Positions 51,028 through 57,422 of a DNA stretch of 64,000 nucleotides are shown here, piece after piece. Below the pieces are notes generated by a model. That model did no database searches and was not told the origin of the DNA. It was given only the letters and a program-made list of their open reading frames with translations. Source of the stretch: Flavobacterium okayamense (GTDB lineage: Bacteria > Bacteroidota > Bacteroidia > Flavobacteriales > Flavobacteriaceae); contig NZ_AP024749.1 in NCBI RefSeq assembly GCF_019702945.1, positions 930,001-994,000 of the forward strand, read 5' to 3'. Position numbers and translations under genes: made by a program. Each line of letters opens with the position of its first letter. Position 1 is the stretch's first letter.

Positions 51028-53511
51028 TTAAAATCCTAAATCAAGATGATACGAGATTTTTATTGATATATTATCATCAAATCTTAGAAGTTGATTTGGA
51101 CCATATCTATAATATGCAGTTAACCCAATTCCTTTAAAAATTTTATTTGCTTCGATACCACTTTCAATAAAGCCTTTTTCAAGAGATTTAAAAGGTAAGC
51201 CAATGTGATTTTCAGGGTTGTCAATCGCTCCAATTGCAAATCTAGTTGCAATAGAAAATTCTGGATCAATATGATACCCTAAATTTATTCGATTAAAGGT
51301 GTGTTTTAAATGCAACGAGATAAATCTATCTGAGAAGAATTCGTTGTAATACATCGTTTCGAAACTATTTTTACCTGCAAAAGTCACCCTTTTTAGTATG
51401 GCGTCTCTATTGATGCTATTTGGAGCAATACTGTATAGATGAGTTAGAGGACTATCACCAACGACTATACCTGCTTGAAATAAAACAGAACTTTTTTGTC
51501 CGGATAAATAAGGTAATTCGTAATAAGTTTTAAAATCAACTTTTGTAAATGTAAAATCATTATCAACTGCGCCTGGGATGCTTTGGGATATTTGGAATGA
51601 AAATTTAGGATGTCTTTTTTTATATTCTAATAGCCCTTTTGGCGTTTGCATAAAACTACTAAAAGGGTTCCATTGCAAGGCTAATTGTGCAGTTGTGATT
51701 GTGTATTTCGTAAAACTTTCACCTTCTAATAAATAGGTATAATCGAAAAGTGGTTGGATTTGATTATGATGAAGTCCAAAATAAGCATCTGTTTTTGGAA
51801 GAATTTTGCTTTCTAAAAATACCGAACTTGATCTTGAATTATAAAATGTAGTAATATTAATTGGTCTCGGATCGTATATTTTAAACCGTTTAGGATCTGT
51901 CACAAAATAAGTTTCTGCAATTTCATGAACATCATCAGAATAGGAACCGCTTATCCAAGTTTCGGTTTTTTTGTTTAATAGATAGGATGGAGTTATCCCA
52001 TATTTAAATTCACCATCTTTAAAACCATAGGCTCCATAAGCTCCTATTTTATAATTTTCAGATAGCTTTTCATTAGTAACAAAGCCTAAACCTAATCGAA
52101 AACCTTCATATCCATTGTACTTAATTAAGCTCCTTAAATCTAAGTCGAAATATGAAATAGGAATATATCCGTTGATTATTTTTCTCCCTAAAATTAAACG
52201 GCTTTCTATTTTTTCTGCAACTGATAAACTATCAATAGAAACATAAGTGTTTAGTTTTCTTTTATCAATAGTGTCTTTAGTATAGGTTTTCCAGAAGCTT
52301 TCTTTTTTATTTAAACTCGTTTCTGGAATATCAATTTTTACAAATCGATTATCAATAACAAAATCTTTATTTATAGAAACATCATGTACTTTAGATTCTA
52401 TTATTAATTCAGTATGGTCGCTCGCATTATTGCCTATTTTTTGTTCGGCTGAAGCATTAAATTTAATAGTTCCTCCTAAAAGCTTTAAATCTTCAGTATT
52501 CGTTCCTTTACGAACTTTGAATACTCTTTTTTTAGGAAACCAAATCGTATGTTCTGGAAGATAATCAAAAGTATAGGTTGCATTAATATTTACCACACCA
52601 TATATTCTGTAATAAGCTTTTGCAACAGCAAAAGATTCAGCATCAATATAAAGTAATCCTCGTAATCTATTGGCACGAAGTTTTTTTGGTTGAAAATAGA
52701 TACGATATGTTTTCCTACCTTCAATTGAAACGGTATCAATTATGTTGTAATTGTAAAGTAACCTACCATAATTTGAAATTGGATTTTGAAGAGGGTTTTC
52801 TAAAATTTCAAAAGGATTTTCATAAACAGAATAAGAAACCAACTTTAATCCTAAATATTCATAGATTGGTTTTTCGAAGCCTGCCATTCTTGTCCCTAGA
52901 ATGGTTTCTTTGTTTCCTTTTTTATTAAACTGAATTTGGTTTACTTTTTCAGTTTGATAGATATGTTGTTTTGAGACTAATTTTTTGAATTTGTAATTTG
53001 AAGAATCTAGTTTGGTTTTTATACCACCAAATAATTTTCTTTTTTGAATTGTATCTATTTTTGAAGAAATGCTATCGGGATTAGCAGTTACATATAAATA
53101 CTCGTAATTTTTATATTCAAAACTTTTTAAAGCTTCTTCTGGATTGTTTTTTTCGCGATTATCAATAACTTGCTTTACAATTTTATTTACTTTATTATCT
53201 GTGTAAAGAATACTTTTAGTGTCATTGATATTAGTTGTAGCTTTTATAAGTAGAAAACTTCCATCTTTTTTTGCATAAGCAAACTTATCATAATACCCTT
53301 TGTGTTTAATTATAATTGGCTTTTCAAATTCAGTTATGGCTAACTCAAATTTTCCTTCCCAGTCAGTTTTATGTATTTTTCCTTGGTATAAAACATCGGC
53401 AAAAGCTAATGGTATTGTCGTGTCAAAATCGATAACTTGACCTTTAATTTTGGTTTGACCAAAACTAAAAAGGCTTACAAGAAGTAATAAACTTATAAAA
53501 AGCTTTTGCAT
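51028..53511 (-). CDS. DUF5686 outer-membrane protein with carboxypeptidase-like regulatory domain
   Basis: An 827-residue exported protein. After the signal peptide (MQKLFISLLLLVSLFSFGQ) comes a CarboxypepD_reg-like beta sandwich (KIKGQVIDFDTTIPLAFADVLYQG, about 20-100). The middle (YRIYFQPKKLRANRLRGLLYIDAESFAVAKAYYRI) and a C-terminal barrel of about 350 residues with many aromatic girdle strands fit the DUF5686 family, ending in ISIKISYHLDLGF. No TonB plug is present. The function of the family is unknown; resemblance to outer-membrane assembly or surface proteins is noted. Tandem -7-like boxes are at 53532-53547. Confidence 0.85.
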   Translation of the reverse strand: MQKLFISLLLLVSLFSFGQTKIKGQVIDFDTTIPLAFADVLYQGKIHKTDWEGKFELAITEFEKPIIIKHKGYYDKFAYAKKDGSFLLIKATTNINDTKSILYTDNKVNKIVKQVIDNREKNNPEEALKSFEYKNYEYLYVTANPDSISSKIDTIQKRKLFGGIKTKLDSSNYKFKKLVSKQHIYQTEKVNQIQFNKKGNKETILGTRMAGFEKPIYEYLGLKLVSYSVYENPFEILENPLQNPISNYGRLLYNYNIIDTVSIEGRKTYRIYFQPKKLRANRLRGLLYIDAESFAVAKAYYRIYGVVNINATYTFDYLPEHTIWFPKKRVFKVRKGTNTEDLKLLGGTIKFNASAEQKIGNNASDHTELIIESKVHDVSINKDFVIDNRFVKIDIPETSLNKKESFWKTYTKDTIDKRKLNTYVSIDSLSVAEKIESRLILGRKIINGYIPISYFDLDLRSLIKYNGYEGFRLGLGFVTNEKLSENYKIGAYGAYGFKDGEFKYGITPSYLLNKKTETWISGSYSDDVHEIAETYFVTDPKRFKIYDPRPINITTFYNSRSSSVFLESKILPKTDAYFGLHHNQIQPLFDYTYLLEGESFTKYTITTAQLALQWNPFSSFMQTPKGLLEYKKRHPKFSFQISQSIPGAVDNDFTFTKVDFKTYYELPYLSGQKSSVLFQAGIVVGDSPLTHLYSIAPNSINRDAILKRVTFAGKNSFETMYYNEFFSDRFISLHLKHTFNRINLGYHIDPEFSIATRFAIGAIDNPENHIGLPFKSLEKGFIESGIEANKIFKGIGLTAYYRYGPNQLLRFDDNISIKISYHLDLGF

Positions 53512-53600: not shown

Positions 53601-53654
53601 AATAAAAAATCCCGATAAATCGGGATTCTTATTAAACTTTCATAATCTCAGCTT
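53601..53654. repeat. 54-bp direct repeat, copy A (fragment of frr 3' end plus terminator)
   Basis: Identical base for base to 56080-56133. On the minus strand it contains the last 23 nt of frr (encoding part of EAEIMKV and the stop) and the frr terminator (stem AATCCCGAT / ATCGGGATT at 53608-53616 and 53619-53627). Here it is detached from any frr reading frame and acts as terminator for the DUF6705-like gene. It occupies about a third of the 185-nt spacer 53512-53696; the rest holds the DUF5686 promoter and A/T-rich sequence in which I see nothing else. Confidence 0.95.
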
Positions 53655-53696
53655 ATTAAATAATAAAACCTGTAATTTGAATTGTATTATTATGAT

Positions 53697-54299
53697 TTAT
53701 TGTTTAATCATTAAGTATTCTCCTAAAGGAACTCTTGGTTCAGTGGGAGAATTTTCATCTGGAATAATTACTCCGTGGGTTGAAACAATTTTTGCAATAA
53801 TTTTCTCAGGTTCACCTAAAGTTGGTTGTATATATCTTAATAAAAGAATTGTAGACGTCAAATATTTTCGTTGTGGGTCACTAAAATATAGCATAAGTCT
53901 TTTTTCGTTTGGATCACAAGAAACACAAGGTACAACTTCTTCACTCGTAATAAACCTTCTTCCTCCTATATTTCTTTCATCAATATTATCCCAATCGAGC
54001 AGATTTGTAGGAAGTGTATTAACAATTTCTTGGTTATTTTGAATTAACCTATATTCACCTACTATAATATCTTCATAATATTCTCCATCATATACATGTA
54101 TTTTCTTTTTTAATATAATTGTTAAAGAAATATTTGAATTAGAATATACCCATGTCCCATCGAATTTATCCAACTCTCCTAATGTATCTTTAAAATAAGC
54201 TCCACTTGAAACATTATGGTAATATGTATTCAATGGCACTGTCTGAGCTTTACAAGATACAACTAAAACTATTAAGACTATTTTAAATAAATTTTTCAT
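53697..54299 (-). CDS. DUF6705-like small lipoprotein
   Basis: A 200-residue exported protein; MKNLFKIVLIVLVVSCKAQ is a lipoprotein signal with Cys16. The mature sequence (YYHNVSSGAYFKDTLGELDKFDGTWVY, LTIILKKKI, YYEDIIVGEYRLIQNNQEI) has the order of small flavobacterial lipoproteins grouped as DUF6705, a beta-sandwich-like family of unknown function. A CVSC pair lies near residue 124. It begins 15 nt after the stop of the JAMM-like lipoprotein gene, so the two are surely one operon. Inside the 54-bp-repeat module; the copy-A terminator follows its stop by 70 nt. A binding or protective partner for the upstream protein is plausible but untested. Confidence 0.72.
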   Translation of the reverse strand: MKNLFKIVLIVLVVSCKAQTVPLNTYYHNVSSGAYFKDTLGELDKFDGTWVYSNSNISLTIILKKKIHVYDGEYYEDIIVGEYRLIQNNQEIVNTLPTNLLDWDNIDERNIGGRRFITSEEVVPCVSCDPNEKRLMLYFSDPQRKYLTSTILLLRYIQPTLGEPEKIIAKIVSTHGVIIPDENSPTEPRVPLGEYLMIKQ

Positions 54300-54314
54300 A
54301 ATATATATATTTTA

Positions 54315-55916
54315 TTATTCACATGGCGTAGAAACCACATTGCTGTTATCACTGTTTAATTCAAGTTTACTCCAAGTTTCTGTGACCGATGGGGTTCCAA
54401 AACCTGTTTGATTCATCTCGTATAAAGAAACACCTAAATCTTTGTTTTTTAAAAAAGTTAAAAATGTTTTCTCATAATCAAGTTTTGATCCATTATAACC
54501 ATTTGCATACTCTTCATAATAATAAGATAAACTATTTGCAAATTTTGACCATTTACGTGGACTTCCATTATTATTAGGATGTACATCCCTTAACTTACCT
54601 AATTTATTTATATCATCAATCTTAATTGCATATGTATAAATAACACCATCAATATTTACAACTAAAACAGAAACAAATAAATTATTACCGCTTGTATTAT
54701 AACTTGAATAAAAACCAGAATTATAAGTATCAGCTATACTAAGCAATGTATAAATATCATCATGAGAAAACATTGGGAAGTAACCAGATGTCGGATGTGT
54801 ATGTATAGTCCCAAATTGATATGCAAAACCCGGAAAATGAACATGATTATCCCCTGAAGGATTAGTATATTTAGCAAAAGGCCCATATTCAAGATAATTT
54901 CCCATATTAAAAAAAGCATATCCTTTCTCAGTTGAAGCAGAAAACTCAGAACCCATATTTATAATTGCATTTCTAATTCTTTTATCGTTTGAATCCATAT
55001 ATGGATGAGTTGGATAATTCTTTTTTTCAGTTAACTTATTTAACTCATCACATGGCGTAGGAGGATCCTGCATACTATTATCCTCATTAAGAGTTGGGGC
55101 AGTATCTACTCCTCCATTTCCGTGAATACTTGTGTCTGAACCATCATATGTGGAATCATTAGAATCTGAAGAACCACCTCCACCTCCATTTGAACCACCA
55201 GTGTCTCCAGTTCCAATAACTTCTCCATCATCTGTTGCACAAAGTCCATATTCAACATTTATTACATATTCAAAAGTATCAGCAATACAATTTGGATATC
55301 CAGGAACTCCAGGTCTATGACCTGAAACATTATTGCTACATTTCCAATACTCGGTAGTTCCTGTAATACAAGGACTATATACAATTTTATTTGATAGTTG
55401 AGATAAAAAATTATCGTCGTTAAAAATTTCAATACTCATTTTATTATCCATATCAACAAACAGACCATTTTTTAAATTTTCAAATTCAGGTTGAGTAATA
55501 TTATATGTTACTATAAAACTTTTGTATGTTCCATCTTCTTGTAAAGAAATTACCAAATTTTCTAATAATACATTTTCTAAATTACGATTTATATAAAAAG
55601 TATATGAGTGTAAACCATTTTCATTTTCAATGTAAGTAGCTGAATTCGTATTTATAAAAAAACTATTATCTGAAGCCGAAACTATTTTGTTGGCAGATTT
55701 TGCTGTCAAAGTTTCTTTATCTGTGTTTAACTTTGAAAATAAGTTTTTGTTTTTAGAAAAGATTTCAAAAGATACTTTTTCTTTTTTAAAATGGGCTTTA
55801 TTCCCATCTTCATCATGATATTCTCTAGAAGAATCATCATAATTACATGCTACAAAAAATGCCCCAACAAAAAAAGAAAATAAAGCAAAGAGCAGCTTAA
55901 ATTTGTGTTTGTTCAT
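54315..55916 (-). CDS. Large lipoprotein with JAMM/MPN-like metalloprotease motif
   Basis: A 533-residue lipoprotein (MNKHKFKLLFALFSFFVGAFFVAC, Cys24, followed by Asn-Tyr-Asp-Asp). Residues 30-180 are a beta-rich domain of unknown type. About 183-226 form a cysteine-containing motif (CITGT, YWKCSNNVSGHRPGVPGYPNC). Residues 231-275 are a Gly/Ser/Asp linker. About 300-500 form the C-terminal domain, with GTIHTHPTSGYFPMFSHDDI giving His372, His374, Ser384 and Asp387 spaced as HxH-x9-SxxD, the JAMM zinc-hydrolase signature; a Glu such as E330 may be the general base. JAMM enzymes are usually cytoplasmic isopeptidases; here the domain is envelope-attached. Substrate unknown. Whether the fold is true JAMM needs structure prediction. 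Confidence 0.7.
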   Translation of the reverse strand: MNKHKFKLLFALFSFFVGAFFVACNYDDSSREYHDEDGNKAHFKKEKVSFEIFSKNKNLFSKLNTDKETLTAKSANKIVSASDNSFFINTNSATYIENENGLHSYTFYINRNLENVLLENLVISLQEDGTYKSFIVTYNITQPEFENLKNGLFVDMDNKMSIEIFNDDNFLSQLSNKIVYSPCITGTTEYWKCSNNVSGHRPGVPGYPNCIADTFEYVINVEYGLCATDDGEVIGTGDTGGSNGGGGGSSDSNDSTYDGSDTSIHGNGGVDTAPTLNEDNSMQDPPTPCDELNKLTEKKNYPTHPYMDSNDKRIRNAIINMGSEFSASTEKGYAFFNMGNYLEYGPFAKYTNPSGDNHVHFPGFAYQFGTIHTHPTSGYFPMFSHDDIYTLLSIADTYNSGFYSSYNTSGNNLFVSVLVVNIDGVIYTYAIKIDDINKLGKLRDVHPNNNGSPRKWSKFANSLSYYYEEYANGYNGSKLDYEKTFLTFLKNKDLGVSLYEMNQTGFGTPSVTETWSKLELNSDNSNVVSTPCE

Positions 55917-55992
55917 ATATTAAAATTTAAAAATTAGTGTTCTTTCTTAAATATATAAGAGTATGTTTTACAGTAAAAGGTTGGGGACTTGG

Positions 55993-56000
55993 CAAAAATA
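55993..56000 (-). promoter_or_regulatory. -7 element for the two-gene lipoprotein module
   Basis: The minus strand reads TATTTTTG then CC, about 77 nt before the ATG of the JAMM-like lipoprotein gene. It lies within the module, so the inserted genes bring their own promoter. The rest of the 55917-56079 spacer is A/T-rich with nothing else recognised. Confidence 0.5.
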
Positions 56001-56079
56001 AATTAAAAAACATTTAACTTGGATAAAGTTTTTCTGTACATTTTGTTAAAATTTAGAATAGTACATCTAAAGTTTTAAA

Positions 56080-56133
56080 AATAAAAAATCCCGATAAATC
56101 GGGATTCTTATTAAACTTTCATAATCTCAGCTT
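56080..56133. repeat. 54-bp direct repeat, copy B (functional frr 3' end plus terminator)
   Basis: Identical to 53601-53654. Positions 56111-56133 are the final frr codons and stop; the terminator stem is 56087-56095 / 56098-56106 with a 2-nt loop and T run on the minus strand. This copy is the in-place frr end. Confidence 0.95.
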
Positions 56134-56674
56134 CTTTAACTGCTAAGACATCATCAATTTTTTTGATATATGCATCAGTAAGTTTTTGTACATCTTCTTC
56201 TGCTTTTTTACATATGTCTTCTGAAGTTCCGTCTTTTTCTTCTTTTTTAATGTCGTTGTTAGCGTCTTTACGAGCATTACGAACACTAATTTTGGCATCT
56301 TCAGCTTCAGCTTTAGCTTGTTTGGCTAAATCTTTACGTCTTTCTTCTGTTAGAGCAGGAATGTTGATAATGATGCTTTCTCCGTTGTTCATTGGATTTA
56401 GACCTAAATTAGCAATCATAATCGCTTTTTCAATAGGACCAATCATACTTTTTTCCCAAGGAGTTACCGTTAAAGTTCTTGCATCGGGTGCAGCAATATT
56501 TGCAACCTGCGAAAGTGGTGTTTGTGAACCATAATAATCTACAAATACACTTCCTAACATGGCAGGTGACGCTTTACCTGCTCTAATGTTTACAAATTCT
56601 TTTTCTAAATGCAAAACAGAATGCTCCATCGATTCTTTTGCAGTTTCTATAATTAAATTAATTTCTTCTGTCAT
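56111..56674 (-). CDS. frr: Ribosome recycling factor
   Basis: RRF splits post-termination ribosomes with EF-G. Length 187. The three-helix domain is clear: MEHSVLHLEKEFVNIRAGKASPAML, then the beta-domain segment VDYYGSQTPLSQVANIAAPDARTLTVTPWEKSMIGPIEKAIMIANLGLNP, then LTEERRKDLAKQAKAEAEDAKISVRNARKDANNDIKK. Follows pyrH by 40 nt in the usual pyrH-frr order. Its last 23 nt are duplicated at 53632-53654, marking this 3' end as a junction. Confidence 0.97.
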   Translation of the reverse strand: MTEEINLIIETAKESMEHSVLHLEKEFVNIRAGKASPAMLGSVFVDYYGSQTPLSQVANIAAPDARTLTVTPWEKSMIGPIEKAIMIANLGLNPMNNGESIIINIPALTEERRKDLAKQAKAEAEDAKISVRNARKDANNDIKKEEKDGTSEDICKKAEEDVQKLTDAYIKKIDDVLAVKEAEIMKV

Positions 56675-56714: not shown

Positions 56715-57422
56715 TTATATGGTAACAGTAGTTCCTACCGTTTGGCCTTCACAAACTTTTAATAAATTACCTTCCTTATTCATGTCAAAAACAATAATTG
56801 GTAATTTGTTTTCTTGACTTAAAGTAAATGCAGTTGTATCCATTACATTTAAACCTTTTGCTAAAACATCTTCAAATGAAATAAAATCGAATTTTACAGC
56901 ATTTGCATCTTTTTCTGGGTCGGCGGTGTAAACACCATCTACACGAGTTCCTTTCAAGATAACATCTGCATTAATTTCAATTCCTCTTAAAACTGCGGCA
57001 GTGTCAGTTGTAAAATATGGATTTCCAGTTCCTGCACCAAAAATTACAATACGACCTTTTTCTAAATGACGAGTAGCTTTTCTTTTTATGTATGGTTCTG
57101 CAATGGCTTCAATTTTTAAAGCGGTTTGTAAACGTGTTGGCATACCTGCTTCTTCAAGCGCTCCTTGAAGTGCCATTCCGTTAATTACTGTAGCAAGCAT
57201 GCCCATATAATCACCTTGAACACGATCCATTCCATTACTCGCACCAGCAACACCTCTAAAGATATTTCCTCCTCCAATTACAATGGCAATTTCAACACCT
57301 TTGTTGTGAATTTGTTTAATTTCATCAGCGTATTCAGCTAAGCGTTTTGGGTCAATTCCATATTGTCGTTCACCCATTAGAGCTTCACCACTTAATTTTA
57401 AAAGGATTCTTTTATATTTCAT
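56715..57422 (-). CDS. pyrH: UMP kinase
   Basis: Bacterial UMP kinase (amino-acid-kinase fold), 235 residues, converting UMP to [65 protein letters not shown] and [19 protein letters not shown] are family signatures. Upstream of frr as in most bacteria. Confidence 0.98.

What the first reader, a model, noticed from the sequence alone, without database searches (positions are those of the whole stretch)
53601..56133. A 54-bp direct repeat copies the frr 3' end and terminator around a two-gene lipoprotein module
Positions 53601-53654 and 56080-56133 are identical over 54 bp. The copy beside frr is its true 3' end (23 coding nt plus stop and hairpin); the other copy is detached, 2479 bp away, just past the end of the DUF6705-like gene. 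Two similar terminators alone would not explain identity continuing into frr codons. This is the footprint of integration at a gene 3' end with regeneration of the target, as integrative elements do at tRNA and other conserved 3' ends, but here with a tiny cargo and no recombinase. frr could be a reusable landing site for lipoprotein cassettes in this genus.
Basis: partly seen in the sequence, partly recalled or inferred. Interest (0 to 1): 0.82.

Follow-up and report, generated by a model that had tools for sequence, protein, structure and literature searches.

The report
Toxin cassette docked behind frr gene
A small pair of genes that looks like an antibacterial toxin and its antidote sits behind an essential gene and is flanked by a copy of that gene's tail; related bacteria carry different such pairs at the same spot, so the spot appears to be a reusable docking point.

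Summary
The 54-bp repeat is real: 53601-53654 and 56080-56133 are identical, 2479 bp apart, covering frr's last 20 coding nt, stop and terminator. Between them lie a 533-aa lipoprotein and a DUF6705 lipoprotein. The insertion reading holds. In 68 of 112 unique frr loci DUF5686 follows frr within 400 nt (empty site); the sequence behind the detached copy, not that behind frr, matches the gap of an empty relative (77 nt, 86%, E 4e-18). Ten of 398 genomes, this one included, carry partial frr 3' copies: nine hold cassettes of varying content, one only a remnant. The cargo resembles a polymorphic toxin-immunity module: C-terminal type goes with partner type, and relatives at frr carry Tae4 and Imm11. 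Some cassette segments (10 of 41) are more alike between species than frr is. The same family behind sucB, gldD and a small gene also duplicates those 3' ends. Repeat edges vary and 40 cassette proteins show no recombinase, so I favour recombinase-free capture (single crossover or one-sided illegitimate recombination) over an integrase. Toxicity and excision are untested; structure prediction never ran.

The parts
56111..56674 (-). frr, ribosome recycling factor, intact (187 aa); landing gene
   Evidence: PF01765 227 bits; ORF list
56080..56133 (-). proximal repeat copy: last 20 coding nt of frr, stop, terminator (hairpin about 56084-56109)
54315..55916 (-). 533-aa lipoprotein: conserved N-terminal part with Cys24 (invariant in 12 aligned members), Gly-rich linker, variable C-terminal part with a JAMM/JAB-like HxHP...PMFSxxD motif; proposed toxin
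   Evidence: no Pfam family; the motif name and the lipobox are my recognition, no call names them
53697..54299 (-). DUF6705 lipoprotein (200 aa); proposed immunity partner
   Evidence: PF20448 131 bits, cut-off 24.4; pairing with C-terminal type
53601..53654 (-). distal (detached) repeat copy; by position the native end of frr before insertion
51028..53511 (-). DUF5686 gene, the native downstream neighbour of frr in empty relatives
   Evidence: PF18939 82 bits; synteny
56715..57422 (-). pyrH-like gene upstream of frr (flank; name recalled)
   Evidence: ORF; the corresponding side of relatives was used as a core comparison

Best explanation
The window holds a polymorphic toxin-immunity-like lipoprotein cassette (54315-55916 toxin-like, 53697-54299 DUF6705 partner) inserted directly behind frr. 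Shown: the native frr end stayed next to DUF5686 as the detached copy, frr has a second, intact 3' end, empty sites exist, and the same site in other Flavobacterium species holds other cassettes of the same build, sometimes several in a row. Inferred: cassettes move between cells as ordinary DNA that already contains the end of the donor's frr followed by the cassette. Either the fragment is circularised and integrates by one crossover in frr's 3' end, or one end recombines in frr and the other joins illegitimately inside frr (homology-facilitated illegitimate recombination). Either gives an intact frr, the cassette, then a leftover frr 3' end whose length depends on where the fragment happened to end. 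Recombination between the two copies would delete the cassette cleanly. No dedicated recombinase is needed, and the same process can use the 3' end of any core gene that a cassette sits behind.
For: Empty sites: 68 of 112 unique frr loci; distance frr-DUF5686 57-249 nt there, 2600 nt in the window. The 89 nt between the detached terminator and DUF5686 match the frr-DUF5686 gap of the empty relative G302 (85.7% over 77 nt, E 4e-18), while the 89 nt behind the proximal copy match nothing beyond 23 nt. Recurrence: partial frr 3' copies in 10 of 398 genomes, nine by pattern (375 had a match) plus the window; cargo. Arrays: G200 and G393 have three copies of the frr end; in G105 two cassettes with different C-termini and partners are separated by an frr end. 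C-terminal swapping: G393's two toxin-like proteins share 333 aa (95%) and then differ; the second C-terminus is 86.5% identical over 282 aa to that of G332. Transfer: cassette DNA 91.2% over 1253 nt between G007 and G393 against frr 83.5% (p 2e-6) and 87.3% on the pyrH side; G007/G200 97.0% over 562 nt against 88.5%. Cargo: DUF6705 follows 10 of 10 JAMM-like, 0 of 11 HExxH and 8 of 16 other C-termini; Tae4 45.8 bits and Imm11 34.9 bits, both over cut-off, in frr cassettes of G393 and G200. Generality: 10 of 36 non-frr cargo ORFs flanked by direct repeats against 3 of 577 control genes; sucB, gldD and small-gene 3' ends duplicated. No common edge: left edges -197, -108, -99, -94, -89, -71, -56, -41, -41, -40, -29, -23 (two terminator-only copies, G208 from -2 and G105 from +22, left out).
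Against: Left edges of three decayed copies coincide at -40/-41 and four lie between -89 and -108, so a preferred region is not excluded. 26 of 36 cargo ORFs outside frr show no flanking repeat. Of the 10 that do, only 3 are gene-3'-end copies and 1 a terminator region; 4 are intergenic or unassigned (one a palindromic element), and 2 (L150, L254) were not inspected. At a looser threshold of 30 bits the sensitive test gives 8 of 35 against 3 of 35 in the control; at 35 bits, 7 against 0. 31 of 41 cassette segments shared between species are less alike than frr, and one of four tested comparisons was not significant (G007/G200, 1118 nt, p 0.057). In three of four arrays the more diverged copy lies further from frr, but G208 shows the reverse. 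The mosaic test for foreign frr 3' ends was weak: best p 0.005 among 55 pairs, uncorrected. Distal copies are nearest to their own genome's frr in 5 of 8 tests, tie with a sister in 1 and are nearer a sister in 2, so origin by transfer is not visible in them. The window's N-terminal profile is not detected in the frr cassettes of G036, G105, G129, G208 or G332. In G129 and G208 the toxin-like gene is a fragment or split. No toxicity, uptake or excision was measured.
Confidence: 0.68

Rival explanations
1. Integrase-made element: a cis-mobilizable element (CIME-like) whose attL/attR are the two frr 3' ends, integrated by a site-specific recombinase acting in trans and now without its own.
For: Gene-3'-end duplication with target regeneration and tandem accretion is the textbook look (passages of PMC5704250); tandem frr ends in G105, G200, G393; 7 PF00589 hits over cut-off elsewhere in this genome; three left edges coincide at -40/-41.
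Against: Left edges spread from -23 to -197; no recombinase Pfam hit among 40 cassette proteins; other genes' 3' ends used by the same cargo family; the toxin-like protein has no match in the plasmid or phage collections.
Confidence: 0.13
2. Local tandem duplication: frr-toxin-immunity was an old neighbourhood and an unequal crossover duplicated frr's end with it; no transfer.
For: Distal copies are nearest to their own genome's frr in 5 of 8 tests; G105's two toxin-like proteins are related along 396 aa (49%).
Against: 68 of 112 unique loci empty and the native gap lies behind the detached copy; no long copy in 80 near named loci; cassettes of different type in sister species; some cassette DNA more alike than core genes between species.
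Confidence: 0.12
3. Transposition with an unusually long target duplication.
For: Direct repeats flank the cargo.
Against: Repeat length is not constant (54 nt in the window to 276 nt in G200); none of the five inverted-repeat pairs lies at the cassette edges; no transposase among the Pfam hits of 40 cassette proteins.
Confidence: 0.03

Closest known systems
Vibrio cholerae T6SS effector-immunity module displacement (Kirchberger et al., PMC5361080, passages seen)
   Same: Effector-immunity modules added one after another without specific integration sites, shifting back old 3' ends; homology-facilitated illegitimate recombination proposed
   Different: There the anchor is the secretion cluster and effector gene itself; here it is the 3' end of an unrelated core gene, which stays intact
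Cis-mobilizable elements / tandem accretion at gene 3' ends (PMC5704250, passages seen)
   Same: Direct repeats made of a gene 3' end, target gene kept intact, tandem arrays, no own integrase
   Different: No fixed crossover edge, no related integrase-bearing element found here, several unrelated target genes, 2-gene cargo
SitA/SitI lipoprotein toxin cassettes of myxobacteria (PMC5562445, passages seen)
   Same: Polymorphic lipoprotein toxins with lipobox and C-terminal toxin domain, adjacent immunity gene, several cassettes per genome
   Different: Mostly carried on prophage-like Mx-alpha units or beside other mobile elements; homology to the window protein was not tested
TANFOR polymorphic toxins of Bacteroidetes (PMC7073777, abstract and outline only)
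   Same: Bacteroidetes polymorphic toxins with C-terminal toxin and downstream immunity gene
   Different: Large proteins with an N-terminal TANFOR domain; the window protein has no Pfam match
Homologous recombination of tandem T7SS immunity genes (PMC9484751, search listing and start of abstract only)
   Same: Strings of non-identical immunity genes, like the DUF6705 arrays
   Different: Firmicute T7SS; no core-gene 3' end mentioned in what I saw

Membership tests
Polymorphic toxin-immunity systems | Conserved N-terminal part joined to interchangeable C-terminal domains | tested here: met
   Alignment A1 of 12 members; G393 pair sharing 333 aa then diverging
Polymorphic toxin-immunity systems | Downstream partner specific to the C-terminal type | tested here: met
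   DUF6705 with 10 of 10 JAMM-like, 0 of 11 HExxH, 8 of 16 others; p 1.3e-4 for JAMM-like against all others (37 proteins)
Polymorphic toxin-immunity systems | Known toxin or immunity domain | tested here: inconclusive
   Tae4 and Imm11 in frr cassettes of relatives; none in the window's own proteins
Polymorphic toxin-immunity systems | Toxic to sensitive cells, neutralised by partner | not testable with these tools
   no experiment
Cis-mobilizable / integrative elements | Flanking repeats made of target gene 3' end, target intact | tested here: met
Cis-mobilizable / integrative elements | Fixed crossover core shared by independent insertions | tested here: not met
   left edges from -23 to -197; edges of decayed copies are approximate and three coincide at -40/-41
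Cis-mobilizable / integrative elements | Recombinase with that specificity, in cis or in trans | tested here: inconclusive
   none in 40 cassette proteins; 8 PF00589 hits elsewhere in the genome, 7 over cut-off, none near; specificity unknown, serine recombinases not searched genome-wide
Transposons | Constant-length target duplication and terminal inverted repeats | tested here: not met
   repeat length varies; no edge inverted repeats in the list
Cassette on plasmid or phage | Relatives on plasmids or phages | tested here: not met
   no match for the toxin-like protein in either collection, nor for DUF6705 in plasmids (DUF6705 not searched in phages)

The most novel reading that the evidence does not exclude
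Flavobacteria run a recombinase-free mobile cassette system: lipoprotein toxin-immunity pairs travel together with a copied 3' end of whatever core gene they sit behind (frr, sucB, gldD and others), dock by homology to that gene's end in the next cell, stack into arrays, and can be lost cleanly by recombination between the copies. Core-gene 3' ends act as address labels for weapon exchange.
Probability: 0.45. Interest if true: 0.82.

Novelty: new variant of a known kind. Interest (0 to 1): 0.63.

Why it matters
It would explain how small toxin-immunity pairs spread and stack in bacteria without carrying mobility genes, and it makes a prediction anyone can scan for: duplicated 3' ends of core genes mark recent cassette arrivals. 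It also gives a function to test for DUF6705, a name that no paper of the held library contains.

Tried and rejected
Chance or shared terminator: rejected. Assembly artefact: unlikely, because the genome is one contig and other species show the same structure. Foreign origin of the proximal frr 3' end by mosaic identity: tested, only weak. Plasmid or phage carriage: none. PADLOC, NCBIfam and the PDB sequence search gave nothing useful for the window's two cassette proteins (PDB: only the 533-aa one was searched). Of the 10 non-frr loci with flanking repeats I inspected 8: L156 is a palindromic element, L146, L251 and L257 are intergenic or unassigned, L141 is a terminator region behind a csp gene, and only L152 (sucB), L153 (small gene) and L154 (gldD) are gene-3'-end copies; L150 and L254 were not inspected. 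Literature: the listings showed no description of this frr site; the library holds only open-licence papers.

Rows dropped: 36 loci of cargo relatives outside frr were examined; L144 gave no ORF (its frame holds a stop) and L156 gave two, hence 36 ORFs; one search used 35 ORFs (loci at contig ends without an upstream ORF fell out). Of 44 cassette ORFs listed, 40 were scanned (the four of G195 were not). G183 and G347 (two separate full frr genes) and G147 (split frr) were not counted as 3' copies.

Errors of mine: some proteins of frr cassettes (L130, L131, L132, L134) were cut in the wrong frame; one search replaces them and only one search is used for those. The outputs were cut; searches covered part of what was lost.
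Full report
Observation. The window's positions 53601-53654 and 56080-56133 are identical over 54 bp and lie 2479 bp apart. frr occupies 56111-56674 on the minus strand (PF01765), so the copy next to it is its own last 20 coding nucleotides, the stop and a strong terminator hairpin (-13.1 kcal/mol). The other copy starts 42 nt past the end of the DUF6705 gene. In the whole genome (2.78 Mb, one contig) the remaining matches cover the hairpin and at most 39 of 60 query positions. As background, 5 of 875 gene 3' ends in related loci have a same-strand copy within 10 kb.

Which copy is original. In 68 of 112 unique frr loci of the genus and near relatives the DUF5686 gene starts within 400 nt of frr (57-249 nt); 11 have it further away and 33 have none downstream, so their state was not judged. 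In the window DUF5686 starts 2600 nt behind frr but 121 nt behind the detached copy's stop. The 89 nt between the detached terminator and DUF5686 match the frr-DUF5686 gap of the empty relative G302 (85.7% over 77 nt, E 4e-18), whereas the 89 nt behind the proximal copy match no relative beyond 23 nt. So the detached copy sits in the native place, and the cassette plus a fresh frr end were put in front of it. None of the 80 nearest named frr loci has a downstream frr 3' copy longer than 29 nt (76 of them have 3 kb or more downstream).

Recurrence at frr. A pattern for the conserved frr C-terminal codons was run over 398 genomes of the genus (375 had a match). Eleven genomes had more than one same-strand match: nine with partial 3' copies (G007, G029, G036, G105, G129, G200, G208, G332, G393), G195 with a decayed whole-gene copy and G132 with two whole genes 35 kb apart. 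The window itself is missed by the pattern because its copy is shorter, so partial copies are known in 10 of 398; shorter or older copies elsewhere would also be missed. Between the copies lie genes of the same kind: a lipoprotein-like polymorphic protein (a fragment in G129, split in G208) and small downstream genes. G200 and G393 carry three copies; in G105 two cassettes are separated by an frr end; G029 keeps only a remnant of about 460 nt between copies.

What the cargo is. The 533-aa protein has relatives in 54 of 398 genomes, its own included. Twelve aligned members share an N-terminal part with an invariant cysteine (Cys24) in a lipobox-like place, a Gly-rich linker and a variable C-terminus. 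Across 37 proteins (the window and 36 from other loci) C-terminal type goes with the partner: DUF6705 follows 10 of 10 with the JAMM-like HxH...PMFSxxD motif, 0 of 11 with HExxH, and 8 of 16 others. DUF6705 occurs in 117 of 398 genomes (108 over the cut-off), often in tandem. In frr cassettes of relatives one C-terminus matches Tae4, an antibacterial amidase effector family (G393, 45.8 bits, cut-off 27), and one downstream protein matches the immunity family Imm11 (G200, 34.9 bits, cut-off 22.1). I therefore read the window's pair as toxin and immunity protein; that is inference, no activity was tested. G393's two toxin-like proteins share 333 aa and differ afterwards; the second one's C-terminus is 86.5% identical over 282 aa to that of G332. 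The N-terminal profile of the window family is detected in the frr cassettes of G393, G200 and G007, not in those of G036, G105, G129, G208 or G332.

Transfer. Cassette DNA is 91.2% identical over 1253 nt between G007 and G393 and 90.8% over 1343 nt between G332 and G393, while their frr genes are 83.5% and 84.8% identical; G007/G200 share 97.0% over 562 nt against frr 88.5% (one-sided p 2e-6, 1e-4, 2e-8). A fourth comparison, G007/G200 over 1118 nt (91.1%), was not significant (p 0.057). These were picked from 41 shared segments, of which 10 are more alike than frr and 31 are not. The pyrH side of the four species pairs tested is 85.8-87.4% identical. Accessory genes more alike than core genes point to exchange between species for at least those segments. 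The window toxin-like protein's nearest relative (49% identity, G302) sits behind ilvE in a genome whose frr site is empty.

Other landing genes. Of 36 cargo ORFs outside frr, 10 are flanked by a direct repeat, against 3 of 577 control genes. With a more sensitive alignment at 35 bits it is 7 of 35 against 0 of 35 with swapped loci, at 30 bits 8 against 3. Inspection of 8 of the 10 shows gene-3'-end copies at sucB (G246, three copies), gldD (G255) and a 60-aa gene in this same genome (C1:1366279-1369039; the repeat has no further copy in the genome), plus a terminator region behind a csp gene (G170). The remaining repeats are palindromic, intergenic or unassigned and are not claimed.

Mechanism. 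Repeat left edges, counted from the frr stop, are -197, -108, -99, -94, -89, -71, -56, -41, -41, -40, -29 and -23 (edges of decayed copies are approximate, and two terminator-only copies are left out). The spread, the absence of a recombinase family among 40 cassette proteins and the use of several unrelated genes speak against one site-specific integrase. Eight PF00589 matches exist elsewhere in the genome, none within about 390 kb of frr. The structure is what single-crossover integration of a circularised fragment, or homology-facilitated illegitimate recombination, would leave. The latter was proposed for V. cholerae effector-immunity modules (PMC5361080, passages), and circularisation followed by single crossover of linear DNA is described for E. 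coli (PMC3240628, abstract). A dprA-family gene is present, which is compatible with DNA uptake but does not show it. Three of four multi-copy arrays have the more diverged copy further from frr, as stepwise insertion at frr predicts; G208 does not. The copies themselves do not reveal a foreign origin.

Place among known things. The cargo meets the sequence features of polymorphic toxin-immunity systems. The site looks like a cis-mobilizable element at a gene 3' end but does not show a fixed crossover, so I do not file it there. The listings of my searches showed no description of this frr site or of DUF6705. Verdict: a new variant of a known kind, interesting because core-gene ends appear to serve as docking points without dedicated mobility genes.

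Noticed in passing
L138 (G195), frr and +4741: A whole decayed frr copy 4.7 kb downstream of the intact one, with an MFS-like transporter, a response-regulator-like and an acetyltransferase-like gene between (names recalled); a different cargo from the toxin cassettes.
   Followed up: partly
L135, L136 (G132:C192): Two frr neighbourhoods with the same gene order about 35 kb apart on one contig; segmental duplication or assembly redundancy.
   Followed up: no
L144 (G000:C1:614577-615410): A third toxin-like paralogue of this genome with one internal stop; it gave no ORF and so was not tested for flanking repeats there.
   Followed up: no
L156 (G186:C12:213000-230000): A palindromic repeat of about 150 bp in four copies interspersed with two toxin-like cassettes.
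   Followed up: partly
frr-DUF5686 interval in L045, L070, L051/L212, L223, L233: DUF5686 lies 0.8-2.0 kb behind frr with other genes between; no long frr 3' copy was found in these loci, so the interval is variable in other ways too.
   Followed up: no
L145 (G152:C5): Four closely similar DUF6705-like genes in tandem behind one toxin-like gene, an immunity-array look.
   Followed up: no
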